In this document: positions 7,291 to 64,000 of the stretch, in pieces
Numbering within the stretch: the stretch's first letter is position 1
Layout: the number at the start of each line of letters is the position of its first letter
Assembly: GCA_019054805.1 (NCBI GenBank)
Contig: JAHQIY010000041.1
Coordinates: 268,200 to 332,199 of the forward strand
Direction of reading: 5' to 3'
DNA: 64,000 nt
DNA from: Brachionus manjavacas
Lineage: Eukaryota; Rotifera; Eurotatoria; Ploima; Brachionidae
Position numbers and translations under genes: made by a program
Notes under the pieces: model-generated
Told to the model about the DNA's origin: nothing
Databases searched by the model: none
The model's input: only the letters and a program-made list of their open reading frames with translations

Positions 7291-7309
7291 TATTATTGTT
7301 TATTTATTT

Positions 7310-8373: not shown

Positions 8374-8657
8374 TGTAGACGTCTCAAAAAAGAAGTTTGT
8401 TTTACACAACTTGAAGCTTGCATAGGAACGCACAATTTACTATATATTAGTTTTTTTTTTAGTTTAAGTAATTGTTAGTTTTTTAGTTTAGTTATAATTT
8501 AAATTTTGTTTTGTTTTTTGTTTTGGATTTGGACCTCGTGTCCTAATAAAGTTGTAAAAAAACCTTATTGTGATTGATCCGAAACCCTCGAGTCTAGAAT
8601 AGGACTTGAGAAGTCTGACTGGGAAATAAAAGCCCACCAGCAGACATAAATATTACA
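8374..8657 (+). repeat. 5' LTR
   Basis: 284 bp starting TGTAGACGTCTC and ending ATATTACA. The same sequence recurs at 15379-15662 with no difference I can see. It contains an AATAAA at 8545-8550. Confidence 0.92.
8545..8550 (+). promoter_or_regulatory. Polyadenylation signal in the LTR
   Basis: AATAAA followed by a T/A-rich stretch within the LTR (repeated at the same place in the 3' LTR). This is the expected site for 3'-end formation of the element transcript. Assigned from motif and position only. Confidence 0.4.
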
Positions 8658-8676
8658 GTGGTGCCCAATTTGCTGA
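8658..8676 (+). other. Candidate tRNA primer-binding site
   Basis: Directly after the 5' LTR, one base in, the sequence begins TGGTGCCCAATTTGCTG. TGG is the complement of the CCA tail of a tRNA, and the position is right for a minus-strand primer site. Which tRNA it would pair with cannot be told from this window. Confidence 0.5.
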
Positions 8677-8972
8677 ACAGTTTACAAACAGTAAACGTTC
8701 GGAACGAACTCACGAGAAGGAAAGAATTTTTGTGGTAGTGTAGGTTAGTTTGCTGAAGCAGCGAGTGGATTTGTGTAGACTAGGGACGCAGCGACGAGAC
8801 GTCTAACAATCAAAGAAGTTGTGCAATACTGAATACACGTGTAGAAACCACATTAGGGAAATTTTATTTGGCGAATCGACTATAGATTTAGTGATTCACG
8901 TGGAGGAAAGAAATTAAAAATCCTTTTTAATCAGCGCATATAAAAAGAAAACTCTAGGAAATAGCCATTCCA

Positions 8973-9485
8973 ATGCACGAAACATTGGAACTCCTGTCGA
9001 TCATAGCAACAGCTTTGTTCGGAACACGGAGTGAAACAAAGAAAGTGGCTGAAGACGTCGTGGTACCAAAAGCGTGGTTCGAACACTATTTGGAGATAGT
9101 GGAAACCACGTGGACCGATTATTACATCGGGTTCATAGCGACACTATTCAGCATCATAGTGATAAGCACGTGGTATAGAACAAGGCGTCGGAACAAAACT
9201 TTAGACGATAAGTTCAACAGAATCGACGCGAGATTCGATCAATTGATGGGAAATATCAATAATAGACCCCAAGACTTCATATGCTCAAATGTTAACACGA
9301 ACAGGTTGGACATTAAAAAAGCAATGGAGACTACAAGGACATCATCCATGGAAGCAAAGAAGCAAACATCGCCGGAAATTTCAGATAGCATATTAACAAC
9401 CCAGACGTCTGATATTGGACCACCCAAAAGCTGTAGCACACCGACCACAAAACAAACAAGGGAATGGTACAATGACCATAACTAG
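8973..9485 (+). CDS. Small membrane-anchored ORF upstream of gag
   Basis: 170 codons beginning with ATG, 315 bp after the LTR. The N-terminus is hydrophobic (LELLSIIATALFG). Residues about 50-68 form one clear membrane helix (IGFIATLFSIIVIS), followed directly by RTRRRNK, which predicts a cytoplasmic side by the positive-inside rule. The rest is polar and Ser/Thr-rich. No retroviral matrix or envelope signature is visible. It ends at a UAG (9483-9485) that lies in exactly the same frame as gag-pol, so read-through would give a membrane-anchored Gag-Pol. Ty3/gypsy elements normally have no such ORF. The role is unknown; anchoring Gag to a membrane is an inference. Confidence 0.7.
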   Translation: MHETLELLSIIATALFGTRSETKKVAEDVVVPKAWFEHYLEIVETTWTDYYIGFIATLFSIIVISTWYRTRRRNKTLDDKFNRIDARFDQLMGNINNRPQDFICSNVNTNRLDIKKAMETTRTSSMEAKKQTSPEISDSILTTQTSDIGPPKSCSTPTTKQTREWYNDHN

Positions 9486-12400
9486 ATCGAAGGTCAACCA
9501 AAAAAAGTACTTAGCGAAGAAGTGAACCCCACCGCACCGAGAGCGGACAACACTTTTGTCGACCCGAGTAGACAAGTGCGATTTAAAATACCCAACACAT
9601 TGAACCAGCACAACTCCGGACAAAAGATTGAGACAATCAATCCATACCCGATATTATTTGTTTCACCACCAGACAAATTTGACCCCAAAAGAACAGACGT
9701 CAGACAGTGGATTAAAGACTTCGATATGTTCATCGAAACAAACAACATCAACTCACACAAATTGAACATTGTCATTGCACATTTGGACCATGAAACAAGA
9801 AAGATCATTGAAAACAGCCAGTTCAGTCTAAATGAAGAAACTGCTTATGCGGAATTGAAAACACTTTTAAGCCAACTCTACGGAAGAAAAACTACTCCGA
9901 ATCTGGAACTTAAAAGGCAGTTCACGGAAAGAGTTCAAAGTTTCCACGAAAACGTCTACCTATACGCTTCACAACTTAAAGTAATGTCCAAACAGTCTCA
10001 TTATGAACTTTTACCATATCAAAGGGACAATCTGGTGAAAGAACAGTTCATACGTGGACTAAGAGACAAATTTCTGCGCACACGACTACAGATCATAAGA
10101 GAAGAAATGTCATTAAAAGACATTATAGAGGAGGCGGCCAGATATGAAAGAGCGGTTGAAGACGTCCAAGAGTTCCCAGAAAGAACAAAAAAAGTGGATT
10201 TCGAAGAGAAAATTGAAAAACATTTTTACAAACCACAACCAACACATAATCTTCAAACAACACAACAACAAAACACGCCAGGGTCCGATCAAATTATTTG
10301 CTACAACTGCAAACAAGAAGGACACTATAGCAGGAGTTGCCCGCAAAAACCGAAATACACAGTAAACAACATTGAAACGACACCAATGCACGGATTTTGC
10401 AAAATTAACAATATTGGCGTAAGATTTTTGGTAGACACAGGTTCTAAGCATTCAATTCTGAGCGCAAAAACATGTCGAAAGCTAAGATTAAAGCCACAAA
10501 AGAGCTCAATTGAACTGCATAACGCTGATGGGAATAAAATAGGAATAATCGGTCGGGCCGATGTAGACGTCAGAATAAACAATGAGTCATACAAGATTGG
10601 AATGATTATAGTTGAGAATTTAGTCAACGAAATGATTTTGGGTGTAGATGATCTAAACAAATTTAGAAACCCAAGACGTCTTGTAAATGCGTTAAAACAG
10701 TGGACCTCTAGCACATTGCGTAAACTCAAACCAGGAAAATTTAGAAACCCGGCTAAAAAGCTGACCCAAATGAAGAACAAAATCGAAACTACACAAAAGG
10801 AAACCAATGACATTTTAAAAGCAAACGATGCTTCCAAAATTACGGGAAAAGTATGTAAAACAACTGCGTTAGCGGTTATAAACAAAATTCGAGAAAAAAC
10901 ATCTATCAAACAAGAATTTAGCGAAGAACAACTCGAGAACGCGAGAGAAAAGATAGACGAAAGGGTTACCGAAATTTCAGCCACTAACCTGACAGATCTT
11001 ACACCAACAGACAAAACACAGCACACCATCGAAGTAACCGATAAAACACCGTTTCATATCAAAACGAGACCGGTACCATACGCCAAGAAAGAGGAATTCA
11101 AGGCATTAATCGAAGAAATGCTCGAAGCCAACCTTATCAGACGTTCAAAATCCCCTTACTCCTCACCTGTCCATCTAGTAAAAAAGCCAGAGGGCGGAAT
11201 TCGCATGACAATTGATTACAGGAAATTGAACAAAAGAACGGTCAAAGACAATTACCCTCTGCCAAGAATAGACGTCACCCTGTACAGCCTTAAAAATTCA
11301 AATATTTTCTCAAAGATAGACTTTCATTCAGGGTACTTCCAAATACTTATGAATCCTGAAAGCAGACCACACACAGCATTCAGTTGCGAGTACGGATTGT
11401 TCGAATTCAACGTCATGCCAATGGGATTAACCAATTCCGGAGCAACTTTCCAGAGGCATATGGATAATGTTTTTAAGGACTTAATTGATAAGTTCCTTAT
11501 GGTCTACATCGACGACATTATTGTATATTCAGAAACAATAGAAGAACACTTCGAACACCTAAAGCAAGTATTTGATATTATAAAAGAACAAAATTTAAAG
11601 ATCAAACCGAAAAAATGCAAGTTTTTTCAAACGTCTATTGATTTCTTAGGACACACAGTTAGCAACGGTGAAATCAGACCATCAGCCGAAAAAGTAGAAG
11701 CCATTAACAACCAAAAGAAACCCGAAAACGTTGAGAACATTCAATCGTTCATCGGTATGGCTACACACTATAGAAAGTTCATCAAGGATTTCGGTAAAAC
11801 CGCATGCCCTCTACATGAACTCTGCGCCAAAGACGTCCCTTTCGTCTGGAATGACGAATGCCAGGCCGCTTTCGACAAGCTAAAGGAAGCGCTTACCAAT
11901 GAACCAGTCTTGACAATACCAGACTTCAAAAAGCGTTTTTATTTGGAAACAGACGCCTCGAATAAAGGAATTGGCGCCGTGCTTTCACAAATGGACTCAG
12001 AAAACAGACTAAAACCTATAGCTTATTATTCGAGAAAGTTAAATAAAGCAGAGCAGAATTACTCCACAGCTGAACGAGAGATGCTCGCCATTGTCAATGC
12101 GGTAGAACATTTTAAAGAATTCCTTTACGGTACGAAATTCACTATAATTACAGACCATCAACCGCTTAAATGGATAAACAGTGTAAAAAACCCTGCACCT
12201 CGCCTCGTCCGATGGATAATCAGACTCGAAAATTACGAGTTCGACATCGAGTACAGGCCGGGGAAAAGTAATCAAGTGGCGGATGGACTCTCGAGATGGC
12301 CAATAGACAAACTAACAGAGACGTCCCAAGACGATAAAGAAACATTCATCATAAATAATTTAATAGGAAGGAACTCGATCAACACAATAATGTTCAAAAA

Positions 12401-14087
12401 CATAAAAGGCGATCTGAGTAACCTAAAAAGTGATGAAAACATCGAATGGGTAAAAAGGGTGATATTAGGCGAGATAATCCCGGAAAAAGATCTAAACAGC
12501 GAACAAGCCGATCTCGTTAAACAGTTGAGGTATCTGAAAGTGAGCGAGGGTCACCTATGGAAGATAGAAGAAAACGGAGGATACGCAATACCTCAATTGG
12601 TTGTTCCAAAAGCAGACCGGAAGAAAATAATGGAGCTCAACCATTCCTCTATAATGAGCGGACACTTAAAATTCGAAAAAACTATTGATAGAATTAAGAG
12701 AAAATTTTATTGGCCTGGAATGAACAAAGACGTCTCAAAGTTCATCGAAGAGTGCACCGAGTGCCAGAAAACATCCAACACTAAAAACAAACCTCGAATA
12801 CCATTAAATCCACTAAGGCCAAGTCACCCCTTAGAAATAGTGACCACCGATATCCTGGGACCGCTAAAGACCAGTAAAAACGGTTATAAATATATATTAG
12901 TGATTGTGGATCATTTCACAAAATGGGTTGTTCTCTTTGCTCTAAAAAGGATCGATGCCAAAACAACAGCACAATACTTATTTAGATTTATTTGTCTGTT
13001 CGGTATACCAGACGCCCTTTTATCTGACCAAGGCAAGAACTATCAAGCTCAACTGGTACAAGAGCTCTGGGAGTTGTTGGACGTAAGACGTCTACGAACC
13101 AGCCCATTCCACCCGCAATGCGATGGCTTATCCGAAAGGTTTAACAGGACTTTAAAGCGCATGATTACGTGTTTCATCAACAAGGATCACGACAATTGGG
13201 ATGAGATATTACCCTCCTTGAGTATGGCCTATAACACAGCAGTACACTCAACTACAAAATATACACCTTATGAACTCATGTTCGGAAGAAAACCAAAATT
13301 ACCAATCGACCTGGTTTACGAGGTACCAACATTGAGTCTTAAATTTGACCCGGAGAGTTTCGCACAGTCAACAAAAGATAGTTTAAGAGAGGTTTTTGGT
13401 TTAGTCCGCAAAAACAGGGATGTCAGAGTTCAAAGAAACAAATTGATCTACGATCGATATGTCATGGCAGCTAAGTTCAAAAAGGGGGACACGGTCTGGT
13501 TAAAAAACGAACAAATTAAAAAAGGCGAGTGTAAAAAGTTTATATTTAGTTGGAAAGGCCCATACATTGTTATCAAAAATATTAAAAATATCAACTATTT
13601 AGTAAAACCGCTGTACAAAAACAAAGGACGTCCCATAATAGTAAACCGAGTAAGAATCAAAAAGCATTTCGGTAGCCACGACCAATCCATAAACGAAGAA
13701 AACAAAGAAAACGTTCACACACGGGAAAAGAGAGTTGGAACTTGGCAATCGAAAAGAGCCAAAAAAATAGTAGAAAAAGCAAAGAAAACAAGGAAAAACA
13801 AGTCGATCGGGAACGATCGGAAATCGAAAGAAGGTGAAAATGGAAAGGGGCTTCTGCAGCCAGAACTAGCACCTGTAATCGACCTTCAAAATCTGACATC
13901 GAATGGACAAACTGCCCAGGATGAGAATATCAAGGTCAAGTACAGAACTACCCAAAAGACCAAACAGAGTGAAGAAGAGAAAGAGGATCCAACCTTTAAG
14001 AATAAAAAAATAGATGACACCTTCGCACCAGATAGACCGGTAAGAAACAGGAAGAAGCCCGATTGGTTCGGGCAAAAAGAAAAATAA
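9486..14087 (+). CDS. Gag-Pol polyprotein of the Ty3/gypsy element
   Basis: One uninterrupted frame. Numbering residues from the GTG at 9522: Gag-like region about 30-250 (FDPKRTDVRQWIKDFDMF); CCHC knuckle from C260 (CYNCKQEGHYSRSC); aspartic protease active site D305 (DTGS); reverse transcriptase with YIDD at 662-665; RNase H from D811 (ETDAS); integrase zinc domain H1041 to C1078/C1081; integrase catalytic triad D1110, D1169, E1205 (DDX35E); then a GPY/F-like module (WKGPY) and a long basic/acidic tail. All key residues are present. There is no ATG between the preceding UAG and codon 69, which already lies within Gag, so initiation must come from upstream read-through or a non-AUG codon. 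Gag and Pol share a frame with no shift. Confidence 0.92.
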   Translation: MEGQPKKVLSEEVNPTAPRADNTFVDPSRQVRFKIPNTLNQHNSGQKIETINPYPILFVSPPDKFDPKRTDVRQWIKDFDMFIETNNINSHKLNIVIAHLDHETRKIIENSQFSLNEETAYAELKTLLSQLYGRKTTPNLELKRQFTERVQSFHENVYLYASQLKVMSKQSHYELLPYQRDNLVKEQFIRGLRDKFLRTRLQIIREEMSLKDIIEEAARYERAVEDVQEFPERTKKVDFEEKIEKHFYKPQPTHNLQTTQQQNTPGSDQIICYNCKQEGHYSRSCPQKPKYTVNNIETTPMHGFCKINNIGVRFLVDTGSKHSILSAKTCRKLRLKPQKSSIELHNADGNKIGIIGRADVDVRINNESYKIGMIIVENLVNEMILGVDDLNKFRNPRRLVNALKQWTSSTLRKLKPGKFRNPAKKLTQMKNKIETTQKETNDILKANDASKITGKVCKTTALAVINKIREKTSIKQEFSEEQLENAREKIDERVTEISATNLTDLTPTDKTQHTIEVTDKTPFHIKTRPVPYAKKEEFKALIEEMLEANLIRRSKSPYSSPVHLVKKPEGGIRMTIDYRKLNKRTVKDNYPLPRIDVTLYSLKNSNIFSKIDFHSGYFQILMNPESRPHTAFSCEYGLFEFNVMPMGLTNSGATFQRHMDNVFKDLIDKFLMVYIDDIIVYSETIEEHFEHLKQVFDIIKEQNLKIKPKKCKFFQTSIDFLGHTVSNGEIRPSAEKVEAINNQKKPENVENIQSFIGMATHYRKFIKDFGKTACPLHELCAKDVPFVWNDECQAAFDKLKEALTNEPVLTIPDFKKRFYLETDASNKGIGAVLSQMDSENRLKPIAYYSRKLNKAEQNYSTAEREMLAIVNAVEHFKEFLYGTKFTIITDHQPLKWINSVKNPAPRLVRWIIRLENYEFDIEYRPGKSNQVADGLSRWPIDKLTETSQDDKETFIINNLIGRNSINTIMFKNIKGDLSNLKSDENIEWVKRVILGEIIPEKDLNSEQADLVKQLRYLKVSEGHLWKIEENGGYAIPQLVVPKADRKKIMELNHSSIMSGHLKFEKTIDRIKRKFYWPGMNKDVSKFIEECTECQKTSNTKNKPRIPLNPLRPSHPLEIVTTDILGPLKTSKNGYKYILVIVDHFTKWVVLFALKRIDAKTTAQYLFRFICLFGIPDALLSDQGKNYQAQLVQELWELLDVRRLRTSPFHPQCDGLSERFNRTLKRMITCFINKDHDNWDEILPSLSMAYNTAVHSTTKYTPYELMFGRKPKLPIDLVYEVPTLSLKFDPESFAQSTKDSLREVFGLVRKNRDVRVQRNKLIYDRYVMAAKFKKGDTVWLKNEQIKKGECKKFIFSWKGPYIVIKNIKNINYLVKPLYKNKGRPIIVNRVRIKKHFGSHDQSINEENKENVHTREKRVGTWQSKRAKKIVEKAKKTRKNKSIGNDRKSKEGENGKGLLQPELAPVIDLQNLTSNGQTAQDENIKVKYRTTQKTKQSEEEKEDPTFKNKKIDDTFAPDRPVRNRKKPDWFGQKEK

Positions 14088-14297
14088 GACGCCTTGTTAT
14101 TATAAATATAGTATACTTAAACAACCATATTGTAAATAATATATTGTGAATATTAGTCAAATGTTTCGTAAGTCAAATATAATCCCACATCATTAAATAA
14201 AAAACTCATACACAATTTTCATAATTTTGCAAATTGATAATAACATTTTCTATAATTATTCATAAAATTTATTTTCAAAAAAAAAAAAAAAACAAGA
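14088..14297 (+). other. Short non-coding gap between pol and ORF3
   Basis: About 210 bp, AT-rich, ending in a run of 15 A just before the ATG of ORF3. No splice site or internal promoter can be supported from the sequence alone. Confidence 0.4.
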
Positions 14298-15353
14298 ATG
14301 CAAGCTGAAGCCAATCAAGTAATGGTACGATGCTATCCAGCATCGCTCAACTTAAAAACAATCCGCGAATTTTTGGACATCCTCAGGACAAGAATCGGAC
14401 CCATACGATATGCTCGATTCTTGGCAGAACACGACAGGGTCGATACCGTCGCCTTCATATCATTTTACGACAAAAACAACATCAAGAAATGCGTGAAGGA
14501 AATGTACGGACGTCTGAAAAACCCGGACGATCCAGCTCACCGAATCCAATTCAAGACCAACCGGAACAATCATTTGGATGCCGAGTTTGAGTTCCCCCAC
14601 ACGGAGGTAAGAATATACGACCTACAAAGAGAGAACGGGCTGGTCCACCGAGAGGAGTATAGAGACTCAAACATCTATGAAAAAAGAATTGAGACACCCC
14701 TCGTGGAAACCATCGAACCTAAAGATAAAAGCCATTCACGCATGAAATTCTTAGACGACTTTTACGCCAAGTACACGGCCAAGACGTCCAAAGAAAAAAT
14801 CGACCGAATATGGGAGCGAGTGCAAATCAAAAACAATCGGATGGGACTGGGTTTCGAGCAGAAGGAGGCCGAAATAGGACAGACCAAAAGAGTAATGATG
14901 GAAATTATTACCGATCTGGATCCAACCTTCAAAAACCACACTGGTCAAATGACAGACTGGCCCCTCAAAAGAATGGATAAAGAAATGGAGAAGGCCCATG
15001 AAAGATGGATGGAGCACAACATCGACAACCAAAAAGAAGCAAGAGCAATGTGGAGAATGGAAAAGATTGAGTGGGAGGAAAGCCTATTAAACGGACCAAC
15101 AATAAACACGGTTCAGGGCACCAACACTAACGAGGAAGACGTCTTCAATCACGGCAAGAGGGAAAAACTTGGCGCTTGGCAGTCAAGGAAGGACGCACTC
15201 GAAGATCTCTGTGAGCTCGACCCAAGTCGAAAGAGGTTCGGTATGGAGATACACATGATGGATTGGCCATTGAAGAAAATCCAAGAGGAGATTGAGAAGA
15301 GTAGGAAGCGGTTGGCATTCAGATTGGACAGTGACGAAGACACCCCACCATAA
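14298..15353 (+). CDS. Third ORF of the LTR element, RRM-like N-terminus, unknown function
   Basis: 351 codons from an ATG downstream of pol, where envelope genes sit in some elements. It has no signal peptide or membrane helix, so it is not an envelope protein. Residues 7-70 fit a beta-alpha-beta-beta-alpha pattern (VMVRCYPA, LKTIREFLDILR, TVAFISFY, KKCVKEMYG) reminiscent of an RNA-recognition motif. The remainder is highly charged and helical. Two segments are related: 207-237 and 307-339, sharing LDP, then MxDWPLK, then an ExEK(x3)R helix. The frame is intact in an element with matching LTRs, which suggests it is kept by selection. I do not recognise the family. Confidence 0.72.
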   Translation: MQAEANQVMVRCYPASLNLKTIREFLDILRTRIGPIRYARFLAEHDRVDTVAFISFYDKNNIKKCVKEMYGRLKNPDDPAHRIQFKTNRNNHLDAEFEFPHTEVRIYDLQRENGLVHREEYRDSNIYEKRIETPLVETIEPKDKSHSRMKFLDDFYAKYTAKTSKEKIDRIWERVQIKNNRMGLGFEQKEAEIGQTKRVMMEIITDLDPTFKNHTGQMTDWPLKRMDKEMEKAHERWMEHNIDNQKEARAMWRMEKIEWEESLLNGPTINTVQGTNTNEEDVFNHGKREKLGAWQSRKDALEDLCELDPSRKRFGMEIHMMDWPLKKIQEEIEKSRKRLAFRLDSDEDTPP

Positions 15354-15378
15354 ATTTTGTTTTTTTAAGGGTAAGTTG

Positions 15379-15662
15379 TGTAGACGTCTCAAAAAAGAAG
15401 TTTGTTTTACACAACTTGAAGCTTGCATAGGAACGCACAATTTACTATATATTAGTTTTTTTTTTAGTTTAAGTAATTGTTAGTTTTTTAGTTTAGTTAT
15501 AATTTAAATTTTGTTTTGTTTTTTGTTTTGGATTTGGACCTCGTGTCCTAATAAAGTTGTAAAAAAACCTTATTGTGATTGATCCGAAACCCTCGAGTCT
15601 AGAATAGGACTTGAGAAGTCTGACTGGGAAATAAAAGCCCACCAGCAGACATAAATATTACA
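15379..15662 (+). repeat. 3' LTR
   Basis: 284-bp direct repeat of 8374-8657, TG to CA, followed by the duplicated AAAG at 15663-15666. Confidence 0.92.
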
Positions 15663-16010
15663 AAAGGTTTCAAGTCTATGATTCTTGAAATCAGAGGGCC
15701 AGAAGTGAAAACGAAAAGTAAAATACCTTCTGAGATCCGGGAGTTAATTTGCATCTTCAAGTCTGAAAATGGTTGCATTAATATTGATTTCACGATCGAA
15801 AATTTTGGCAACATAAAAAGCAGCATTAAACTTAATTATCCAAACTTTGTTTGAAGAGAAATTGTAGATACTTGTGATCGCATCATTTTCCACTTGATTT
15901 TGAAATATATCTAGTGCACTAAATAATACATTATGGCTAATAGTTTGTCTAAACTCTTCAAAACAAGATTGACAAAATTTTTAAATATCCACCGTCGGAT
16001 TTGGTTTGTT
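15663..16010 (-). pseudogene. LINE ORF1 (Gag-like), 5' part
   Basis: Minus-strand translation gives CFEEFRQTISHNVLFSALDI, then VWIIKFNAAFYVAKIFDREI and, after one stop, RRYFTFRFHFWPSDFKNH, ending at the LTR insertion point. It continues the ORF1 fragment at 7559-8373 in the same orientation. The order fits a jockey/CR1-like ORF1, with the conserved region ahead of the zinc knuckles. One in-frame stop and a frame offset at the junction show the LINE was already dead. Confidence 0.55.
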
Positions 16011-16149
16011 TTGTTGAGCGACATTGCCAACACACAACTTTCAACGGTTTTTTAAATCACGTGATGACGATATTAATTAAATTTTGTTTTTTTTCAAATT
16101 TACTAAGCCATATGACAATTTTCGTATTTTCGATATTTAAAATAATTAC

Positions 16150-16215
16150 TAACTTTTTTTTTTTTTTTTTATTGTTAAAACCTTTGGGCTTTCGCCCCTT
16201 CAGGGTTATGTTTAT
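16150..16215 (-). repeat. LINE or SINE 3' tail: hairpin plus poly(A)
   Basis: On the minus strand: CCTGAAGG, stem-loop GGGC-GAAA-GCCC (16186-16197), a short AT stretch and a run of 17 A (16154-16170). It matches the design of the tail at 7310-7345. It marks the end of another retroposed copy lying between the WD40 gene and the ORF1 fragment. Confidence 0.5.
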
Positions 16216-16326
16216 TAAAATAAAAGAAATAAAATTAAAAATTAAAAAAAGAAAAAAAATAAGGTAATTATTACAAGTAAATTAAAGAAAATTTAATAAC
16301 TTTGAGAAACTTATACTAGTTTGAAT

Positions 16327-17352
16327 TTATTTCCAAATCATGACTGTATTATCGTCACTTCCGCTAACTATTGTATTTTGATCTATTAATAGAAGACAAT
16401 TTACGCAATCAGAATGACCAGTCAGAATTTTGATGCATACTGAGTTGTGAATATTCCAAATCCTAATTGTATTATCGTGACTTCCGCTAGCAATTGTATA
16501 TTGATCTATTAATAGAAGACTCCCAACGAAAGCTGTGTGACCTTTCAGTGTTTTGATGCATTCTGAATTGTGAATGTTCCATATCTTGACTGTATTATCG
16601 CTACTTCCGCTTGAAATTGTATTTTGATCTACCGAAAGAAGACAACTAACCCAATCAGTATGACTTGTCAGTGTTTTGATGCATTCAGAATTGTCAATGT
16701 TCCAAATCTTAATTGTATTATCGCAACTTCCGCTAGCTATAGTATTTTCATCTATTAAGAGAAAACAAAAAACTGAGTTAGAATGGCCTGTGAGTGTTTT
16801 GATGCTTTCTGAATTGTGAATGTTCCAAATCTTGATTTTTTTGTCGTCACTTCCGCTAGCTATTTGATTTTGATCTATTGTAAGAAGACACCTTACCGGA
16901 TTTTTATGACCTTTCAGCGTTTTGATGCATTCAGAATTGTCAATATTCCAAATCTTAATTGTATTATCGCAACTTCCGCTAGCTATAGTATTTTCATCTA
17001 TTAAAAGAAAACAAAAAACAGATTTAGAATGGCCTGTCAGTGTTTTGATGCTTTCTGAATAGTCAATGTTCCAAATCTTGATTGTACCATCGCAACTTCC
17101 GCTTGCTATTTTATTTTGATCTATTGATAGAAGACTCACAACGAAAGTTGTGTGACCTTTCAGTGTTTTGATGCATTCTGAATTATGAATGTTCCAAATC
17201 TTGATAGTATTATCATGACTTCCGCTAGCTATTGTATTTTGATCTATCTTAAGAAGACAACTTACCCAATAAGTATGACCTGTAAATATTTTGACGCAAC
17301 TGTAGTTATTAAAAAATGACACATATGAAGATTTTGAAGACATATTTAACAT
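16327..17352 (-). CDS. Stand-alone WD40 protein, eight near-identical repeats
   Basis: 341 codons. The start is fixed by a TGA directly in front of the ATG in the same frame; a second Met follows three codons later. After about 20 residues, eight WD40 units of 41 residues follow, each of the form GHxxxVxxLLxIDQNTIASGS then DNTIKIWNI. Eight blades are enough for one closed propeller. There is no kinase, NACHT, F-box or other domain. Units 3 and 5 are nearly identical and the DNA repeats with a period of 123 bp, so the repeats have been recently duplicated or homogenised. WD40 propellers usually serve as protein-binding platforms; the partner is unknown. A mirror copy with frame breaks lies at 55073-56112. 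Confidence 0.85.
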   Translation of the reverse strand: MLNMSSKSSYVSFFNNYSCVKIFTGHTYWVSCLLKIDQNTIASGSHDNTIKIWNIHNSECIKTLKGHTTFVVSLLSIDQNKIASGSCDGTIKIWNIDYSESIKTLTGHSKSVFCFLLIDENTIASGSCDNTIKIWNIDNSECIKTLKGHKNPVRCLLTIDQNQIASGSDDKKIKIWNIHNSESIKTLTGHSNSVFCFLLIDENTIASGSCDNTIKIWNIDNSECIKTLTSHTDWVSCLLSVDQNTISSGSSDNTVKIWNIHNSECIKTLKGHTAFVGSLLLIDQYTIASGSHDNTIRIWNIHNSVCIKILTGHSDCVNCLLLIDQNTIVSGSDDNTVMIWK

Positions 17353-18485
17353 TCAATTATATGTTTGTTGATTAACTTTATAAAAAATGAATGTCAGTTT
17401 TAATTGGTAACTTAACACGCTTGTACATGAGAAATTTCAATCATTTGATAAATTAAGCTTTGTACTTATTTACATTATTTTTAAACTTTTTTCAGCAAGC
17501 TATTAGTTTCCGTTGCTATTGGATTTCATTGACTTTTGAAAAAAAATAATTTTCGAAAATATGATGGAAACAAAATGAAATATAATAATTATTAAGTTTT
17601 AATTCTATATTTTAATATGCACTCGCGTAATCACTCTTGGCTGTTATATCCATCTAATAATTGTCCCTATTCTATCCTAGTGGTTTTGAATCCTCGATCC
17701 TCTGCTTGCATGACTAACACGCAAACCATTCGGCTATACGGGTTTCATACCCATCTAGCTTACTTTTATTTCATCGGCGCAAAAAAATTCATGAATTAAA
17801 TTTTTTCAATTTTACCTATGAATTTTAAGTTAAGAATAAAATAGACAAGTTTCCTTTGAAAGTCATGAAAAAAGAACACAATTCCAGCTTGGATGAATGA
17901 TTTTTACGTGAGCCAAAATCATACATCACCATTGCATTATCAGCACTTAACCTTGATTTAAGAAGGTTTGAAAATAAACTGGAATTCCGATAAAATATAA
18001 ATATACGCTTTTATATTTTATATTATAAAATAAAAAAACTCATGAATAAAAAGAATTTGAAATTTAAAAAAATGCTGTTTTTTAATTTGGCAAAAATATT
18101 TTATTCTTGTATAATTTTTATCAATTATCAAATTGATATTTTTTTATGAAGTTACATTCTAATATTTTATTTTAAACTGTCATACATCTTTTGAAATTTT
18201 AAATTTAAAATCTCAAATAATTGAAACATTAACTAGATCAGATTTTTTTTAAAATTGAATATCAAATCATTATGTCATTATTTAATTATTCGTCACGGCT
18301 GATCGTTTCACGAAATAACAAAAATAAAAAAAATTTCTTCATTTTTAGACATTTGATATTTAAATACAAAATTTTAAAATGATAAAAAGAATTTTATTTT
18401 TAAAATTTACATTCTACCTTTAAAAATTGCTAAATTTTCAATCTTTTAAGCTGATTTCAATTTTACTTGAAAGAATAAAATCAAT
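17353..18485. other. Intergenic, AT-rich
   Basis: Between the WD40 and TMEM272-like genes, which diverge from here, so both promoters should lie in it. Apart from the tRNA-like segment at 17675-17745, nothing was recognised. Confidence 0.4.
17675..17745 (-). repeat. tRNA-like segment, possible SINE head or tRNA pseudogene
   Basis: The minus strand has TAGCCGAATGG (box A-like) followed 35-40 bases later by GAGGATTCAAAACC (box B-like), the spacing of an RNA polymerase III promoter. The acceptor stem does not pair and the anticodon stem is imperfect, so it is not a functional tRNA. No body or tail of a SINE was delimited. Confidence 0.35.
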
Positions 18486-19585: not shown

Positions 19586-19589
19586 TATT

Positions 19590-22015: not shown

Positions 22016-22033
22016 GCTTAATGCAGTAAAATA

Positions 22034-52906: not shown

Positions 52907-53184
52907 TTTATTTTTCCGGAAATTAGTTAATGGGCAAAACATTGTTTTATATAATTTAATCCCGATCTTAAGGGACGGATTGAAATTTTGAGGAATTTTG
53001 TATTTTTTATTGAAATTTAAATCTAGAAATTTAAAGAACAAATAAACTAAAAAAAAATGTAATTTAAAAAGCAGAATTATCGATTTATTTGACATAAAAA
53101 AATTTGCTTTTTATAATCAAAAAAATATGCATATTATATATAATAATTAAAAGTTAATTTTGAAATTTCACTTTTTAATTTTTG

Positions 53185-54669: not shown

Positions 54670-54745
54670 GATAGTATGAAACCCGTATATCCGAATAGTT
54701 TGCGTGCGTCATGCAAGCAGATGATCGAGGATTCAAAACCACTAG
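54670..54745 (+). repeat. Mirror copy of the tRNA-like segment
   Basis: The box A-like part is altered (TATATCCGAATAG), while GAGGATTCAAAACCAC is kept. Same reading as 17675-17745, opposite strand. Confidence 0.4.
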
Positions 54746-55072
54746 GATAGAATAGGGACAATTATTAGATGGATATAATAGCCAAGAGTGATTACGCGAG
54801 TGCATATTAAAATATAGAATTAAAACTTAATAGTAATCATTTTACATTTTGTTTCCATCATATTTTCGAAAATTATTTTTTTCAAAAGTCAGTGAAATCC
54901 AATAGCAGCGGAAGGTAATAGCTTGCTGAAAAAAGTTTAAAAATAATGTAAATAAGTACAAAGCTTTAATTTATCAAATGATTGAAATTTCTCATGTACA
55001 GAAGCGTGTCAAGTTACCAATTAAAACTGACATTCATTTTTTATAAAAGTTAATCAACAAACATATAATTGA

Positions 55073-56112
55073 ATGTTAAATATGTCTTCAAAAATCTTCA
55101 TATGTGTCATTTTGCTACAGTTGCGTCAAAATATTTACAGGTCATACTTATTGGAGTAAGTTGTCTTCTTGGAATAGATCAAAAGCCAATAATAGCGGAA
55201 GTCATGATAATACTATCAAGATTTTTAAAGGAACATTCAAAAAAATTCAGAATGCATCAAAACACTGAAAAGATCACACAACTTTCGTTGTGAGTCTTCT
55301 ATCAATAGATCAAAATAAAATAGCAAGCCGGAAGTTGCGATGGAACAATCAAAAGATTTGGAACATTGACCTTCAGAAAGCATCAAAACACTGACTAGCC
55401 ATTCTAAATCTGTTTTTTGTTTTTCTTTTAATAGATGAAATTACTATAGCTAGCGGAGGTTCTCGATAACTAATTAAAAATTTGGAACCAATTCTGAATG
55501 CATCAAAACACTGAAAAATCATAGAAATCCGGTAAGGAATCTTCTTACAATAGATCAAAATCAAATAGCTAGCGGTAGTGACGATAGAAAAAAATCAAGA
55601 TTTGGAACATTCACAATTCAGAAAGCATCAAAACGCTCACTGTTGATTCTAACTCAGTTTTTTATTTTTTTCTCTTAATAGATGAGAAATACCCATAGCT
55701 AGCGGAAAATTCTGATAATACAATTAAAGATTTGGAACATTGACAATTCTGAATGGTAGAAACACTGACAAGAGTGTCTGATTGGGTTAGTTATCTTCTT
55801 TCGGTAGATCCAAATACAATTTCAAGCGGAAGTAGCGATAATACAGTCAAGATATGGAACATTCACAATTCAGAATGCATCAAAACGCTGAAAGGTCACA
55901 CAGCTTTCGTTGGGAGTCTTCTATTAATAGATCAATATACAATTGCTAGCGGAAATTACGGCTAATACAATTAGAATTTGGAATATTCACAACTCAGTAT
56001 GCATCCAAAGTCTGGCTAGTCGATACTGATTGCGTAAATTGTCTTCTATTAATAGATCAAAATGCAATAGTTAGCGGAAGTGACGATAATGCAGTCATGA
56101 TTCGGAAATAAA
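55073..56112 (+). pseudogene. Mirror copy of the WD40 gene, multiple frameshifts
   Basis: Starts ATGTTAAATATG like the first copy and ends with the same last repeat. Only one stretch of about 70 codons (55753-55965) stays open, covering parts of repeats 6 and 7. Elsewhere single-base insertions and deletions change frame every few dozen bases, often between long identical stretches. Confidence 0.85.
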
Positions 56113-56224
56113 TTCAAAAACTAGAAAGCGTTTCTCAAAGTTATTAAATTTTCTTTAATTTACTTGTAATAATTACCTTATTTTTTTCTTTTTTTAATTT
56201 TTAATTTTATTTCTTTTATTTTAA

Positions 56225-56780
56225 TAAACATAACCCCGCGAGAGGGTGAAAGCCCAAAGGTTTTAACAATAAAAAAAAAAAAAGTTAGTGAGTATTTTAA
56301 ATATCGAAAATACGAAAGGCATGTCATAACTTAGTAAATTTGAAAAAAAACGGAAATTTAATTAATATCGTCGTCACGTGATTTAAAAAAAACCGTTGAA
56401 AGTTGTGTGTTGGCAATATCCTTCAACAAAACAAACCAAATCCGGCAAGTGAATGACCCAAAAATTTTGTCAATCTTATTTTGAAGAATTTAGACAAACT
56501 ATTAATATAATGTATTATTTAATTGCACTAGATGTATTTCAAAATCCAAGTGGAAAATGATGCGATCACAAATATCTACAATTTCTCTTCAAACAAAGTT
56601 TGAATAATTAAGTTTAATGCTACTTTTTAGCCTGTTGTAAAATTTTTCGATCATTAGTCAATATTAATGCAACCATTTTCAGGCTTGAAGATGCAAAGTA
56701 ACTCCCGAGATCTCAGAAGGTATTTTACTTTTCGTTTTTCACTTCTGGCCCTCTGATTTCAAGAATCGCCAGACTTGAGA
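56225..56780 (+). pseudogene. Mirror copy of LINE tail and LINE ORF1 5' part
   Basis: The hairpin plus poly(A) tail (56235-56285) and the ORF1 5' segment (about 56430-56780, reading FEEF, QTI and similar pieces) follow in reverse order and end at the LTR copy. Further small indels disrupt the frame. Confidence 0.6.
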
Positions 56781-56785
56781 GCCTT

Positions 56786-57075
56786 TGTAATATTTATACT
56801 TAACAGATAGACTTTATTTCCCAGTCAGGCCACTTCTGCAGAATCTATTCTAGACTCGAGGGTTTCGGATCAATCACAATAAGGTTTTTTACAACTTTAT
56901 TAGGACACTATTGCAGATCCAAAACAAAAAACAAAACAAAATTTAAGAAGTATAACTAAACTAAAAAACTAACAATTACTTAAACTAAAAAAAACTAATA
57001 TATAATAAATTGTGCGATCCTATGCAAGCTTCCAAGTTATGTAACAAAACAAACTTCTTTTTTGAGACGTCTACA
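56786..57075 (-). repeat. LTR of the mirror copy
   Basis: About 290 bp, reverse complement of the 284-bp LTR with several insertions and substitutions; the TGTAGACGTCTC end is intact. Confidence 0.85.
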
Positions 57076-57099
57076 CAACTTACCCTTAAAAAAACAAGG

Positions 57100-58147
57100 T
57101 ACATGGTGGGGTGTCTTCGTCACTGTCCAATCTGAATGCCAACCAACTTCCTACTCTTCTGTAGATTTTCTTCAATAACAATCCATCATGTGTATCTCCA
57201 TACCGAGCCTCTTTCGACTTAGGTCGAGCTTCACAGAGATCTTCGAGTGCATCCTTCCTTGACTGCCAAGCGCCAGGTGCACCTGCTACGCGGTGGCACG
57301 TCTTCCTCGTCAGTGTTGGTGCCCTGAGACCGTATTTATATTTGGTCCGTTTAATAGGCTTTCCTCCCACTCAATCTTTCCCATTCTCCACATTGCTCTT
57401 GCTTCTTTTTGGTTGTCGATGTTATGCTCCATCCATCTTTCATGGAGCGCTACTCGGAATTTCTTTATCCGTCTTTTGAGAGGCCAGTCTGTCATTTGAC
57501 CGGTGTGGTTTTTGAAGGTTGGATCCAGATCGGCTAATTTCCGTCATTATACTATTTTGGTCTGTCCTATTTCGGCCTCATGCACTCGAAACCCAGTCCC
57601 ATCCGATTGTTTACGATTTTCACTCGCTCCCATATTCGATCGATTTTTTCTTTGAACGACTTGACCATGCCTTTGTAAAAAGTCGTCCTACTAAGTGCGT
57701 GAATGGCTTTTAACATGCGGATTCTGATGGTTTCCCGCGAGGAGTGTCTCAATTCTTTTTCATAGATGCTTGAGTCTCTATACTCCTCTCGGTGGACCAA
57801 CCCGTGCCCTCTTTGTAGGTCGGAATAAATGCTCTTGTCCGTGTGGGAGGAACTCAAACTCGGCGGCTCAAATGATTGTTCCGGTTGGTCTTGAATCTTG
57901 GGTGAGCTGGAACGTCCGGGGTTTCAGACGTCCGTACATTTCCTTCACGCATTTCTTGACTCTTTGATATTTTGTCGTAAAATGATGTGAAGGCGACATT
58001 ATCGATATGTCGTGTTCTACCAAGAATCGAGCATATCATGTAGATTCGATTCTTGTCCTGAGGATGTCCAAAAATTCGCGGATCAGTTATTAAGTTAAAC
58101 GATGCTGAGATAATATCATATTGTGCTTGATTGGCTTCAGCTTGCAT
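57100..58147 (-). pseudogene. Mirror copy of the LTR element's third ORF
   Basis: Start context at 58147 is kept (ATGCAAGCTGAAGCC). Frames of 60-120 codons with REEYRDS, WMEHNIDNQKEARAMW and WQSRKDALEDLCE are spread over all three frames. Both internal repeats can still be found. Confidence 0.75.
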
Positions 58148-58366
58148 TCTTGTTTTTTTTATTTTTTTTTTTTTGAAAATAAGAATTTTATGAATAATTA
58201 TAGAAAATGTTATTATCAATTTGCAAAAATTATAGTATAATTGTGTATGAATTTTTTATTTAATGATGTGGGATTATATTTGACTTACGAAACATTTGAC
58301 TAATATTCACGTATATTATTTACAGTATGGTTGTTTAAGTATACTATATTTATAATAACAAGGCGT

Positions 58367-61300
58367 CTTAATTTTCTTTTGCCCGAGGCCAATCGAGCTT
58401 CTTCCTGACTCTTTACCGGTCACATCTGAGGTACTGGGTAGAATAAATCTATTTTTTTTTATTCTTAAAGGTTAGATCCTACTCTCTTCTTCACTCTGTT
58501 TGGTCTTTTGAGTAGTTCTAATACTTGACCTTGATATTCTCATCCTGGGCAGTTCTTCCATTCGATGTCAGATTTTGCGAGGTCGATTACAGGTGCTAGT
58601 TCTGGCTGCATTAGCCCCTTTCCATTTTCACCTTCTTTCGATTTTCGATCGTTCCCGATCCTTGTTTTTCCTGTTTTTTCTTTTGCTTTTTCTACTATTT
58701 TTTTGGCTCTTTTCGATTGCCAAGTTCCAACTCTCTTTTCCCGTGTGTGGGCATTTTCTTTATTTTCTTCGTTTATGGATTGGTCGTGGCTACCGAAATG
58801 CTTTTTGAATTCTTCCACTCGGTTTACTATTACAGGACGTCCTTTGTTTTTGTACAGCGGTTTTACTAGATAGTTGATATTGTTAATGTTTTGTGATAAC
58901 AATGTATGGGCCTTTCCAACTAGATATAGGCTTTTTTGCACTCGCCCTTAATTTGTTCGTTTTTTAATCAAACCGTGTCCCCCTTTTTGAGCTTAGCTGC
59001 CATGACATATCGATCGTAGATCAATTTGTTTCTTTGAACTCTGACATCCCTGTTTTTGCGGATAAAACCAAAGACATACTCTTAAACTATCTTTTGTTGA
59101 CTGTGCTAAACTCTCCGGGTCAAAATTTAAGGCTCAGTATTGGTACATAAAATAAGGCAGGTCGGTGTGGTAATTTTGGTTTTCTTCGGGACATCAGTTC
59201 ATAAGGTGGCGCTATTTTGTAGTTGAAGATGTACTGCTGTGTTATAGGCCGACTCAAGGAGGGTAATATCTCATCCCCCGAGTAATCGTGATCCTTGTTG
59301 ATGAAACACGTAATCATGCGCTTTAAGATCCTGTTAAACCTTTCGGATAAACAAATCCGCATTGCGGGTGGAATGAAGACAGTTCGTAAACGTCTTGCGT
59401 CCAACTTAACTCCGATAGCTCTTGTAGCCAGTTGAACTTGATGATTCTTGCGGGGAGTCAGATAGAAAGGGCGTAAATAATGCTGAACAGACAAATAAAT
59501 CTAATTAAATTATTTAATAGCTGTTATTTTGGCATCGATCCTTTTTAGAGCAAAGAGAACAGCCCCATTTTGTGAAGTGATCCACAATCACTTATATGTA
59601 TTTATAGCCGTTTTTTGCTGGTCTTTAGCCGTCCCCGAGATATCGGTGGTCACTATTTCTAAGGGAGTGACTTAACTGCCTTAGTGTGTTTAATGTTATT
59701 CGAGCGATTTTAGTGTTAGATCCATTTTCTGGCACTCGGTGCACTCTTCGATGAACTTTGAGACGTCTTTGTTCATTCCAGGCCAACAAATTTTCTCTTA
59801 ATTCTATCAATAGATTTTTCGAATTTTAAGTGTCCGCTCATTATAGAGGAATGGTTGAGCTCCATTAATTTCTTCCGGTCTACTTTTGGGCAATTGAGGT
59901 ATTGCGTATCCTCCGATTTTGCTCTATCTTCCATAGGTGACCCTCGCTCACTTTCAGATGCCTCAACATTTAACGAGATCGGCGTGTTCGCTGTTTAGAT
60001 CTATTTCCGGGATTATCTCGCCTAATATCACCCTTTTTACCCATTCGATATTTTCATCACTTTTTAGGTTACTCAGATCGCCTTTTATGTTTTTTAATTT
60101 TGATATTATTGTTGATCGAAGTTCCTTCCTAATAAATTATTTATGATGAATGTTTCTTTATCGTCTTTTGGTTTGTCTCTGTTAGTTTCTCTATTGGCCA
60201 TCTCAAGAGTCCATCCGCCACTTGCTACTTTGCCACGTACCCACTCGATGTCGAAATAAATTTTCGAGTCTGATTATCCATCGGATTTTTAGTAAGATAC
60301 AGGAATTTTTACACTGTTTATCCATTTAAGCGGTTGATGGTCTGTAATTATAGTGAATTTCATTATAAATAAAAGAATTCTTTAAAATGTTCTACCGCAT
60401 TGACAATGGCGTGTATCTCTCGTTCAGCTGTGGAGCAATTGCAACTCTTAGCTTTATTTAACTTTCTCGAAATAATAAGCTATAGGTTTTTAGTCTCTTT
60501 TCTGAGTCCATTTGTGAATGGCTTACGGCCCGCGAATTCCCTTTATTCGGGCCGTCTATTCCAAACAAAAACGCTTTTTGAAGTCTGGTATTGTCAAGAC
60601 AATTCCGATGTGAAAGCGCTTCCTCTAACTTGTCGAAAGCGGCCTGTCATTCGTCATTCCAGACGAAAGGGACGTCTTTGGCGCAGAGTTCATGTAGAGA
60701 GCGTACGGTTTCACCGAAATCCTTGATGAACTTTCTATAGTGTGTAGCCATACCGATGAACGATTGAATGTTCTCAACGTTTTCGGGGTTTCTTTTGGAT
60801 GTTAATAGCTTCTACCACTTTTCGGCTGATGGTCTGATTTCACCGTTGCTAACTGTGTGTCCTAAGAATCCAATAGACGTTTGAAAAAGGCTTGCATTTT
60901 TCGGTTTGATCTTTAAATTTTGTTCTTTTATAATATCAGATACTTGCTTTAGGTGTTCGAAGTATTCTTCTATTGATCTGAATATACAATAATGTCGTCA
61001 GTCATAGATATAAGGAACTTATCAAATTAAGTCCTTAAAAACATTATCCATATGCCTCTGGAAAGTTGCTCAGGAATTGGATTGTCCCCATTGAAACGAC
61101 GTACCCAATTCGAACAATCCGTACTCGCGGCGGAATGCTGTGTGTGGTCTACTTTCAGGATTCATAAATGGCTAGAAGTACCCTGAATGTAAGTCTTATC
61201 TTTGAGAAAATAACTGAATTTTTAAAAAGCTGAGCGCGAGGCTGACGTCTATTCTTGGCAGAGAGTAATTGTAACGACCATTCTTTTGTTCGAATTTTTC

Positions 61301-63045
61301 CTGTAATCAATTATCATGAAATTCCCGCCACTGCAGCTTTTTTACTAGATGGACAGGAATGAGTAATGAGATTTTGAGACATCTGACAGGTTGGCTTCGA
61401 AGCATGTCGATTAATGCCTTGAATTCCTCTTTCTTGGCGTATGGAGCCTGATCTTTCATTTGATAATGAAACGGTGTTTTATCGGTTTAAAAGCCGATGG
61501 TGATGCTGTGTTTTATCTGTTGGTGTAAGATCTGTCAGGTTAGTGGCTGAAATTTCATTAACCCTTTAATCTATCTTTTCTCTCGCGTTCATGAGTTGTT
61601 CTTCGCCCAAATTCTTGTTTTGATAGATGTTTTTCTCTCATTTTGTTTATAACCGCTAGCGCACACATGCTTTTCCCGTAATTTTGGAAGCATAATTTAC
61701 TTTTAAAAATGTGTTGGTTTCCTTTTGTGTAGTTTCGATTTTTATTCTTCATTTGAATAAACTTTTTAGCCGGGTTTCTAAATTTTCCTGGTTTGAGTTT
61801 ACGCAATGTGCTAGAGGTCCACTGTTTTAACTTGCATTTACAAGGGTCTTGGATTTCTAAATTTGTTTGGGTCATCTACATAAAATCATTTCGTTGACTA
61901 AATTTATGGCTATAATCATTCGATGCTAACATGACTCATTGTTTATTCTGACGTCTACATCGGCCCGACCGGTATTTTATTCCCATCAGCGTTATGCGGT
62001 TCAATTGAGCTCTTTATTGGCACTTTGTAAGCTTAGCTTTCGACATCTTTATGCGCTCAGAATTGAATGCTTAGAACACTATGTCTACCAAAAATCTTAC
62101 ATAATAATGATCAATTTTGCAAAAATCCATTGCATTGATGTCGTTTCAATGTTGATTTACTGCGTAATTCGGATTTTGCACATCTCCTGCTAGAGTGTCG
62201 CTTCTTCTTTGCGGTGCTTAACAAATAATTTGATCGGACCCTGGCGTGTTTTGTTGTTGTATTATTTGGAGCCATAATGTGTTGAGTTGTAATGATTCTA
62301 TAAATATTTTCAATTTTCTCTTCGAAATCCACTTTTGTTTAACAAACCAGAACTCTTTGGACGTCTTCAACAACTATTTCATATTTGGCCGCCTCCTCTA
62401 TAATGTCTTTTAATGACATTTCTTCTCTTATGATCTGTAGTCATGTGCATATAGAAATTTGTCTCTTAGTCCACGTATGAACTGTTCCTTCACCAGATTA
62501 TCCCTTTGTCATGGTAAAAGTTCATAATGAGACTATTTGGAACATTACACAAATTGTAAAACGCTATAGGTCAAACAGACATTTTCGTGGAAACTTTGAA
62601 CTCTTTCCGTGAATTTTTTTAAATTTTCAGATTCAAGTGAATTTTCTTCCCGTAGAGTTGGCTTAAAAATATTTTCAATTCCACATAAGCAATTTCTTCA
62701 TTTAGACTGAACTGGCTATTTTCAACAAATCATATCCCAATGTGCAATGACAATGTTTCAATTTGTGTGAGTTATTGTTGTTTGTTTCGATGAACATATC
62801 GAAATCTTTAATCCGCTGTCTGACGTCTATTCTTTTGGGGTCAAATTTATCAGTGGTGAAACAAATGTATCGAGGTATGGATTGGTTGTATCAATCTTTT
62901 GTCCGGAGTTGTGCTGAGTTCAATGTGATTTAATTATTTTTAAATCGCGCTTATACACTCGAAGTCGACAAAGGTGTTGTCCGCACTCGGTGCAAATTCA
63001 CTTGCTCGCTAAATGCACTTTTTTTGGTTGATAACTCGATCCAGA
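58367..63045 (-). pseudogene. Mirror copy of gag-pol
   Basis: The pol tail (REKRVGTWQSKRAKK, about 58690-58760) and an integrase piece (LSERFNRILKRMITCFINKD, about 59290-59350) are readable. RNase H, RT, knuckle and Gag pieces follow with numerous frame changes. Confidence 0.8.
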
Positions 63046-63049
63046 TTAT

Positions 63050-63554
63050 GAGTCATTACTACCATTCCCTTGTTTGTTTTGTGGTCATTATGCTACGAAA
63101 GATTTTGGGTCTCCAAGTCAGACGTCTGGAGTTGTTAATATGCCTCCTGGAATTTCCGGCGATCTTTGCTTCTTCTTTCCATGGATGATGTCACTGTAGT
63201 CTCCATTGCTTTTTTAATGTCCAACTATATTCATGTGTATTTGAGCATGAATGAAGTCTTGGGAGTCTAATATATTATTTCCCCATCAATTGATCGAATC
63301 TCGCGTCGATTCTGTTGAGCTTATCGTCTAAAGTTTTGTTTATTTTGTTCTATACCACGTGCTTATCACGGATGATGCTGAATAAGCTATGGCCCGATGT
63401 AATAATCGGTCCACGTGGTTTCCGCTATCTCCAAATGAGTGTTCGAACCACGCTTTTGGTACCACGACGTCTTCGACCACTTTTCTTTGTTTGCTTGCAT
63501 GTTCCGAACAAAGCTGTACGCTATGATCGACAGGAATTCCAATGTTTCGTGCAT
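63050..63554 (-). pseudogene. Mirror copy of the membrane ORF
   Basis: ATG context at 63554 is preserved. The membrane-helix region near 63340-63420 and the RTRRRNK region are recognisable, with single-base gaps. The triplet corresponding to the UAG reads differently in this noisy copy. Confidence 0.65.
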
Positions 63555-63868
63555 TGGAATGGCTATTTCCTAGAGTTTTCTTTTTATATGCGCTGATTAA
63601 AAAGGATTTTTAATTTCTTTCCTCCGCGTGAGTCACTAAATCTATAGTCGATTCGCCAAATAAAATTTCTACAATATGATTTCTACACGTGTGTGCAGTA
63701 TTGCCCAACTTCTTTGATTGTTAGACGTCTCGTCGCTGCGTCCCTAGTCTACGCAAATCCACTCGCTGCTTCGACAAACTAGCGCTACCGCAAAATTCTT
63801 TCCTTCTCTCATGAGTTGCGTTCCGAACGTTTTACTGTTTGTAAACTGTTCAGCAAATTAGGCACCAC

Positions 63869-64000
63869 TCATGTGTTTATGTCTGCTGGTGGGCTGTTCC
63901 CAGTCAGACTTCTCAAGTCCTATTCTAAACTCGAGGAGTTTCAGATCAATCACAATAAGGTTTTTTTACAACTTTATTAGGACACGAGGTCCAAATCCAA
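63869..64000 (-). repeat. Partial 5' LTR of the mirror copy at the window end
   Basis: Reverse complement of roughly 8522-8650. The last 60 bases are identical to the first arm, with a four-base gap and a few changes further in. Confidence 0.8.

What the first reader, a model, noticed from the sequence alone, without database searches (positions are those of the whole stretch)
8522..64000. Giant inverted repeat: two arms of about 25-30 kb around 38.4 kb
Seen directly: all landmarks of 8.5-38.4 kb return in mirror order on the other strand up to the window end. Position plus mirror position is about 72,520 at the LTR, 72,450 at the second LTR, 72,380 at the MULE stop, 72,290 at the array edge, and about 76,500 within the array near the fold. 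A palindrome of this size is either a real chromosome-scale rearrangement (isochromosome-like or fold-back duplication, for which satellite hairpins are plausible seeds) or an assembly artefact.
Basis: seen in the sequence. Interest (0 to 1): 0.9.

Follow-up and report, generated by a model that had tools for sequence, protein, structure and literature searches.

The report
Fold-back read at a contig end
The giant palindrome is really in the assembled sequence, but its second half looks like an uncorrected, folded-back sequencing read stuck on the end of a contig that broke off inside satellite DNA, so it is most likely an artefact and not a chromosome rearrangement.

Summary
Observation confirmed: 8523-33526 matches 64000-38420 in reverse at 89% identity with 721 gap openings. 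The strand switches at 38419-38436, inside a 337-bp satellite array.

The window's last base is the last base of contig C41. Outside the array the arms differ by 639 substitutions and 652 indel events. These look like raw-read errors: three other genomic copies of the LTR element side with the left arm at 390/401, 392/401 and 384/394 arm differences; the left element's LTRs are identical over 285 bp; substitutions are even over codon positions (146/156/141) and strand-asymmetric (334:85). Noise starts at 38144-38160, before the switch.

The assembly breaks in this satellite: 38 of 122 contig ends lie in it. Contig C15 ends alike: clean array, strand flip, noise to the end. C23 and C35 start noisy without a flip.

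Best reading: unpolished fold-back read tail. Main loose end: the right array differs from the left by whole units and variants, more than simulated noise allows, so another haplotype or a real second copy is needed. Without reads, a real palindrome is not excluded.

The parts
8523..23052 (+). Left arm outside the array, with long open frames
8373..15662 (+). LTR retrotransposon with LTRs 8373-8657 and 15378-15662, 285/285 identical; gag-pol-like frame 9486-14087. Its mirror copy in the right arm is cut off by the contig end
16327..17352 (-). WD40-repeat open frame (341 aa) in the left arm; no frame over 135 aa in the right arm
19801..21390 (-). MULE transposase open frame (529 aa, MULE + SWIM domains) in the left arm; no frame over 135 aa in the right arm
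23053..38143 (+). Left satellite array, 45 units of 337 bp (inserted 0.3%, deleted 0.8% of bases against its consensus)
38144..38419 (+). Noisy partial 46th unit, still on the + strand: read-like errors begin here, before the fold
38419..38436 (.). Strand switch (fold); incoming strand reaches unit position 295-316, outgoing starts at 38-25, at the unit-boundary hairpin
38437..49214 (-). Right satellite array, 31 noisy units, insertion-rich (4.4% inserted, 1.5% deleted bases), with whole-unit and variant differences from the left array
49215..64000 (-). Right arm outside the array: noisy mirror copy of 8523-23052, ending at the contig end

Best explanation
The right part (about 38144-64000) is the tail of a raw, fold-back long read, or a draft built on it, left uncorrected at the end of contig C41. 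The contig ran into a 337-bp satellite array and should have ended there, as many contigs of this assembly do. A DNA molecule whose two strands were read one after the other, joined at or near a hairpin in a satellite unit, supplied the forward strand and then its complement. The assembler appended the complement as new sequence. Correction never reached it, because clean reads of this locus align better to the left arm. The molecule probably came from another haplotype than the left-arm consensus, because its array has other units. Shown: noise signature, contig end, polarity of the differences, noise onset before the flip, and a second flip into noise at C15. Inferred: single-read origin, strand-after-strand reading, failure of polishing, other haplotype, and the hairpin as the joining point.
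For: Contig ends at window 64000. Arm differences: 639 substitutions, 420 extra-base and 232 missing-base events, mostly 1-2 bases. G<->A 334 against C<->T 85 on one strand, p 6e-36. Codon positions 146/156/141 over five frames, and no lower substitution rate in frames (4.1-5.3%) than elsewhere (3.4%). Third copies agree with the left arm at 390 of 401, 392 of 401 and 384 of 394 difference columns, while 19, 37 and 38 columns show both arms sharing bases that the third copy lacks (2.5 kb of the arm). Left LTRs 285/285 identical although the insertion is in both arms: arms that had truly diverged by 4% substitutions should have left a trace in the LTR pair. Noise starts at 38144-38160 on the + strand, about 260-290 bp before the flip. 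The 2.2-kb flank 17400-19600 has two full-length matches in the assembly, both on C41 (40 of 1,362 candidates scored). 38 of 122 contig ends lie in the satellite. C15 end: 15 minus-strand units (one with a 34-base gap), then 11 noisy plus-strand units to the contig end; its tail has 10.6% deleted and 4.4% inserted bases (10 units) against 0.11% and 0.05% in 13 clean units kept by length. C23 and C35 starts: noisy, all units on one strand. Nanopore reads drop in quality after an inverted-duplication junction (PMC7229812, text parts 1-2 of 4 read).
Against: The right array is not a plain noisy copy of the left one. About 13 units near its outer edge are missing (one block, or 9 + 4, depending on the jump cost), and about 4 near the fold. 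Only 14-19 of 31 right units have their best left partner on the path, whereas under simulated noise 217 and 218 of 225 units find theirs. No right unit has a deletion over 7 bases, while left units 34, 36, 37, 40, 42 and 43 share one of about 10 bp. These are real differences, which a fold-back of the same molecule does not explain; another haplotype is my guess, untested. The extra-base bias of this arm is opposite to the missed-base bias that PMC7229812 reports, and the platform is unknown. No adapter match in the window (patterns recalled). Noise after the fold would also be expected from a real palindrome read by nanopore. The noisy ends do not share one error spectrum.
Confidence: 0.86

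Rival explanations
1. A real inverted duplication exists (germline, or in some cells or one haplotype): the satellite array folded back at a unit hairpin and copied its flank, and the right arm was assembled from few reads and never polished, so it only looks diverged.
For: The arms share bases that other copies lack, the fold on C41 lies at the unit's hairpin, a second flip occurs in the same satellite at C15, and the two arrays differ by whole units and variants as two separate arrays would. Nanopore noise after a real inverted-duplication junction is documented (PMC7229812).
Against: The contig never leaves the palindrome. Noise begins before the fold. Noisy contig ends also occur without any flip (C23, C35). 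Both flips sit where contigs of this assembly often end.
Confidence: 0.11
2. An old real palindrome whose right arm decayed by mutation to 88% identity.
For: Long frames are broken in the right arm, as in decayed copies.
Against: Differences are almost all private to the right arm where tested, left LTRs are identical, indel events are as frequent as substitutions, the substitutions are strand-asymmetric on non-array DNA, and the noise starts before the fold.
Confidence: 0.01
3. Mis-join of two haplotypes or two loci in opposite orientation within the satellite, without any fold-back molecule.
For: Satellite arrays invite mis-joins; the right array differs in unit content.
Against: No third full-length match of the flank was found (capped scoring), and a mis-join of two good contigs would not make the right side noisy.
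Confidence: 0.02

Closest known systems
Fold-back (template plus complement) long-read artefacts carried into assemblies at contig ends
   Same: Second arm is the reverse complement of the first, error-rich, begins abruptly and ends with the contig; a second flip into noise at C15. That such artefacts are a known class is recalled: four paper searches aimed at it failed with errors.
   Different: Raw reads are not available, so the molecule itself was not seen; the array differs by whole units.
Nanopore quality loss after inverted duplications (Spealman, Burrell, Gresham 2020, PMC7229812; text parts 1-2 of 4 read)
   Same: Quality collapses close to the inversion junction and the following arm is full of errors.
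   Different: They report missed bases and a shorter second stretch; here the right arm outside the array is longer (14,786 against 14,530 bases). C15 does show the missed-base bias. Platform unknown.
Satellite-seeded palindromes or fold-back inversions in chromosomes (recalled)
   Same: Fold inside a satellite with a hairpin in the unit.
   Different: No polished second arm and no exit from the palindrome.

Membership tests
Fold-back read / unpolished contig-end artefact | Second arm is the reverse complement of the first and runs to the contig end | tested here: met
Fold-back read / unpolished contig-end artefact | Differences have raw-read character and are private to the second arm | tested here: met
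   polarity tested over 2.5 kb only
Fold-back read / unpolished contig-end artefact | Both arms carry the same array order, as expected for one molecule | tested here: not met
   whole-unit blocks and variants differ; could be met only if the left-arm consensus comes from another haplotype
Fold-back read / unpolished contig-end artefact | A single or very few raw reads support the fold | not testable with these tools
   no reads available
Real chromosomal palindrome | Twofold read depth over the arm and spanning reads that exit into unique sequence | not testable with these tools
   no reads available; the contig does not exit the palindrome
Real chromosomal palindrome, diverged | Arm divergence shaped by evolution (clock, codon positions, no strand bias) | tested here: not met
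PacBio missed-adapter read | Adapter remnant at the fold | tested here: inconclusive
   0 matches with up to 3 mismatches in the window (pattern recalled); noise could hide it

The most novel reading that the evidence does not exclude
The 337-bp satellite, which carries a 15-bp-stem hairpin at its unit boundary, folds back in living cells and makes inverted duplications of its flanks; C41 and C15 would then be two captured events, each seen by few reads and therefore never polished, with the two arrays of C41 already different in unit content.
Probability: 0.08. Interest if true: 0.7.

Novelty: not a real feature. Interest (0 to 1): 0.13.

Why it matters
Anyone annotating this genome should treat contig C41 beyond about window 38143, and contig C15 beyond about 2,293,700, as suspect. 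Otherwise the duplicated transposons, the WD40 gene and the satellite inversions will be counted as real. If the folds were real, they would be fresh examples of satellite-seeded palindrome formation.

Tried and rejected
Old, decayed palindrome: rejected. Mis-join of two loci: disfavoured because no third full-length match of the flank was found (only 40 of 1,362 candidates were scored, a piece of about 100 bp is a dispersed repeat, and C11 has two partial matches of 71-79%). Shared error fingerprint across noisy contig ends: not found. The C15 tail is deletion-biased without strand asymmetry (19:17), the C23 start has about equal inserted and deleted bases and the C35 start more inserted, both with a C<->T excess; the ends are alike in being noisy, not in their spectrum. 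Strand asymmetry inside the array was dropped as evidence, because the clean left array already shows it (130:38). Homopolymer contraction as a platform test: runs of 3-7 are mostly kept and only the few longer ones tend to shrink, so no platform is named. Hairpin at the C15 flip: the junction there is complex (incoming strand reaches unit position 113-88, outgoing starts at 307-329), so I do not claim it. Fixed-offset register of the arrays: offset 13 is the best single offset, but jumps are needed and many units still fit poorly. Naming the organism: a photolyase search found 3,134 relatives; among the 120 listed, those with an organism name are animals, and the highest identity is 76%, to an unnamed 191-aa protein. 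One paper search aimed at a rotifer assembly found nothing and one by assembly size failed. Not identified. After the filing check I reran the array simulation at higher noise; it strengthened the array misfit, so I moved the odds slightly (artefact 0.88 to 0.86, real palindrome 0.09 to 0.11, novel case 0.07 to 0.08).
Full report
WHAT IS THERE. The inverted repeat is in the sequence as described. One minus-strand alignment joins 8523-33526 with 64000-38420 (25,884 columns, 89.0% identity, 1,661 mismatches, 721 gap openings). The first 8.5 kb are not mirrored because the window, and the contig, stop: the window is C41:268200-332199 and C41 has 332,199 bases. The left arm holds an LTR retrotransposon (LTRs 8373-8657 and 15378-15662; reverse transcriptase, RNase H, integrase and protease domains), a WD40 frame, a MULE transposase frame and 45 units of a 337-bp satellite. 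The right arm holds the same in reverse, but its longest open frame outside the array is 135 aa against 1533 aa on the left; frames of at least 100 aa number 12 and 10.

THE DIFFERENCES ARE READ-LIKE. Outside the array, 15,272 aligned columns have 639 substitutions, 420 events with extra bases in the right arm and 232 with missing bases, mostly of 1-2 bases. Codon positions of five frames together are hit evenly (146, 156, 141; one frame alone, at 14256, has 15, 27, 16), and frames are hit no less than other sequence (substitutions 4.1-5.3% against 3.4%). Substitutions are strand-asymmetric: read on the + strand of the right arm, 334 are G<->A and 85 are C<->T, and 8.4% of G read A while 1.5% of C read T. 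This is not expected of mutation in double-stranded DNA and is easier to get from a base-caller (inference). Differences are clustered (variance 43 at mean 12 per 100 columns).

THEY BELONG TO THE RIGHT ARM. Three other copies of the LTR element (C1, C31, C31) were aligned with both arms over about 2.5 kb. At columns where the arms differ, the third copy agrees with the left arm at 390 of 401, 392 of 401 and 384 of 394, with the right arm at 3, 3 and 4, and with neither at 8, 6 and 6. At 19, 37 and 38 columns both arms agree against the third copy, so the right arm is this same insertion. The rest of the arm could not be polarised in this way. The two left LTRs are identical over 285 bp, so the insertion, and any duplication after it, is recent; real divergence of 4% substitutions plus as many indels in one arm only is not credible.

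THE NOISE STARTS BEFORE THE FOLD. The 45th unit ends cleanly at 38143. The next, partial unit is still on the + strand and departs from the consensus at 38144-38160 onwards, with many gaps and mismatches. The strand switch is best placed at 38419-38436. A noisy appended tail explains a quality break that does not coincide with the fold.

THE ASSEMBLY BREAKS IN THIS SATELLITE. A 31-base satellite pattern (up to 3 mismatches) has 1,955 forward and 1,672 reverse matches in the 114-Mb assembly. Of 122 contig ends (400 bases each; some starts are withheld N), 38 match the satellite over at least 137 bases; the end of C41 itself is not one of them. I looked further at the three of these 38 with more than 10 gap bases (C15 end, C35 start, C23 start) and at the C39 end. 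C39 is clean to its end. C15 has 15 minus-strand units, clean but for one with a 34-base gap, then a flip, then 11 noisy plus-strand units to its end: deleted bases 10.6% and inserted 4.4% in 10 tail units, against 0.11% and 0.05% in 13 clean units kept by length. C23 and C35 start noisy with all units on one strand (inserted 3.8% and 3.4%, against 0.5% and 0.3% in their clean units). So noisy contig ends exist in this assembly with and without inversion. This sample was chosen for gaps and says nothing about frequency, and the error spectra of the ends differ from one another.

THE FLANK WAS NOT FOUND ELSEWHERE. A 2.2-kb stretch of the arm (17400-19600) has two full-length matches in the assembly: itself (100%) and the right arm (93%), both on C41. 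The other listed matches are partial: a dispersed repeat of about 100 bp and two pieces on C11 (40 of 1,362 candidates were scored).

WHAT DOES NOT FIT. The right array has 31 units, not 45. Unit matching gives R1-2 = L1-2, R9-20 = L22-33, R25-26 = L38-39 and R27-28 = L44-45 at jump costs of 12, 20 and 30. R4-8 fit L13-17 at costs 12 and 20 and L17-21 at 30; R3, R21-24 and R29-31 are unclear. Only 19, 14 and 14 of 31 right units have their best left partner on the path, while in simulations with noise at or above the measured rates 218 and 217 of 225 units find their true partner and the path is right for all 45 units in each of 5 runs at each of two noise levels (97.8% at a lower noise level). 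Six left units carry a deletion of about 10 bp; the largest deletion in any right unit is 7 bases. Read errors do not do this. I suggest that the fold-back molecule came from another haplotype of a length-variable array while the left arm is the consensus of the first; a real second array would explain it too. The extra-base bias of this arm also differs from the missed-base bias that PMC7229812 describes for nanopore reads of inverted duplications (text parts 1-2 of 4 read), and that paper shows that real inverted duplications also read badly, so noise alone does not prove an artefact.

MECHANISM, STEP BY STEP. Shown: contig end, noise, polarity, onset before the fold, a second flip at C15. 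Inferred: a library molecule ending in the satellite was read strand after strand. The unit has a hairpin with a perfect 15-bp stem (positions 317-331 and 8-22), and the C41 junction falls at it (incoming strand to 295-316, outgoing from 38-25), so a snapped-back end sealed during library preparation is a plausible joiner. The assembler took the complement as new sequence, and polishing could not repair it because clean reads align to the left arm.

VERDICT. A real palindrome in some molecules or one haplotype stays possible (0.11) and needs the raw reads.

Noticed in passing
L143 (C15:2288658-2297657), local about 5000-9000: A second contig end with similar anatomy: clean minus-strand satellite, flip to plus strand, noise to the contig end. 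The flip itself looks complex.
   Followed up: partly
L145 (C23:1-9000) and L144 (C35:1-9000): Noisy satellite at the contig start (about the first 4.8 kb of C23, parts of the first 2.5 kb of C35) with no strand flip: probably unpolished raw tails.
   Followed up: partly
window 23053-38143 and the genome G000: A 337-bp satellite with a hairpin at the unit boundary; 3,627 pattern hits in 114 Mb; 38 of 122 contig ends lie in it. Possibly centromeric or heterochromatic.
   Followed up: partly
L053 (C30:1-400) and L133 (C52:120001-120400): Telomere-like CCCTAA/TTAGGG repeats, with variants, at a contig start and a contig end.
   Followed up: no
C58 and C59: Two contigs of exactly the same length, 56,391 bases; the 1.5-kb stretches compared share no long similarity.
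   Followed up: partly
contig ends of C42-C45, C55 and C61: The end sequences of several small contigs look more G+C-rich and bacterial to the eye, perhaps contaminants; not tested.
   Followed up: no
window 34158-37468, left units 34, 36, 37, 40, 42, 43: A deletion of about 10 bp shared by six nearby left-array units and absent from the 31 right-array units: local homogenisation or a haplotype difference.
   Followed up: partly
window 3-977 and 3700-4692: Left of the arm lie a photolyase exon and a PSP-domain frame; the organism looks like a small-genome animal but was not identified.
   Followed up: partly
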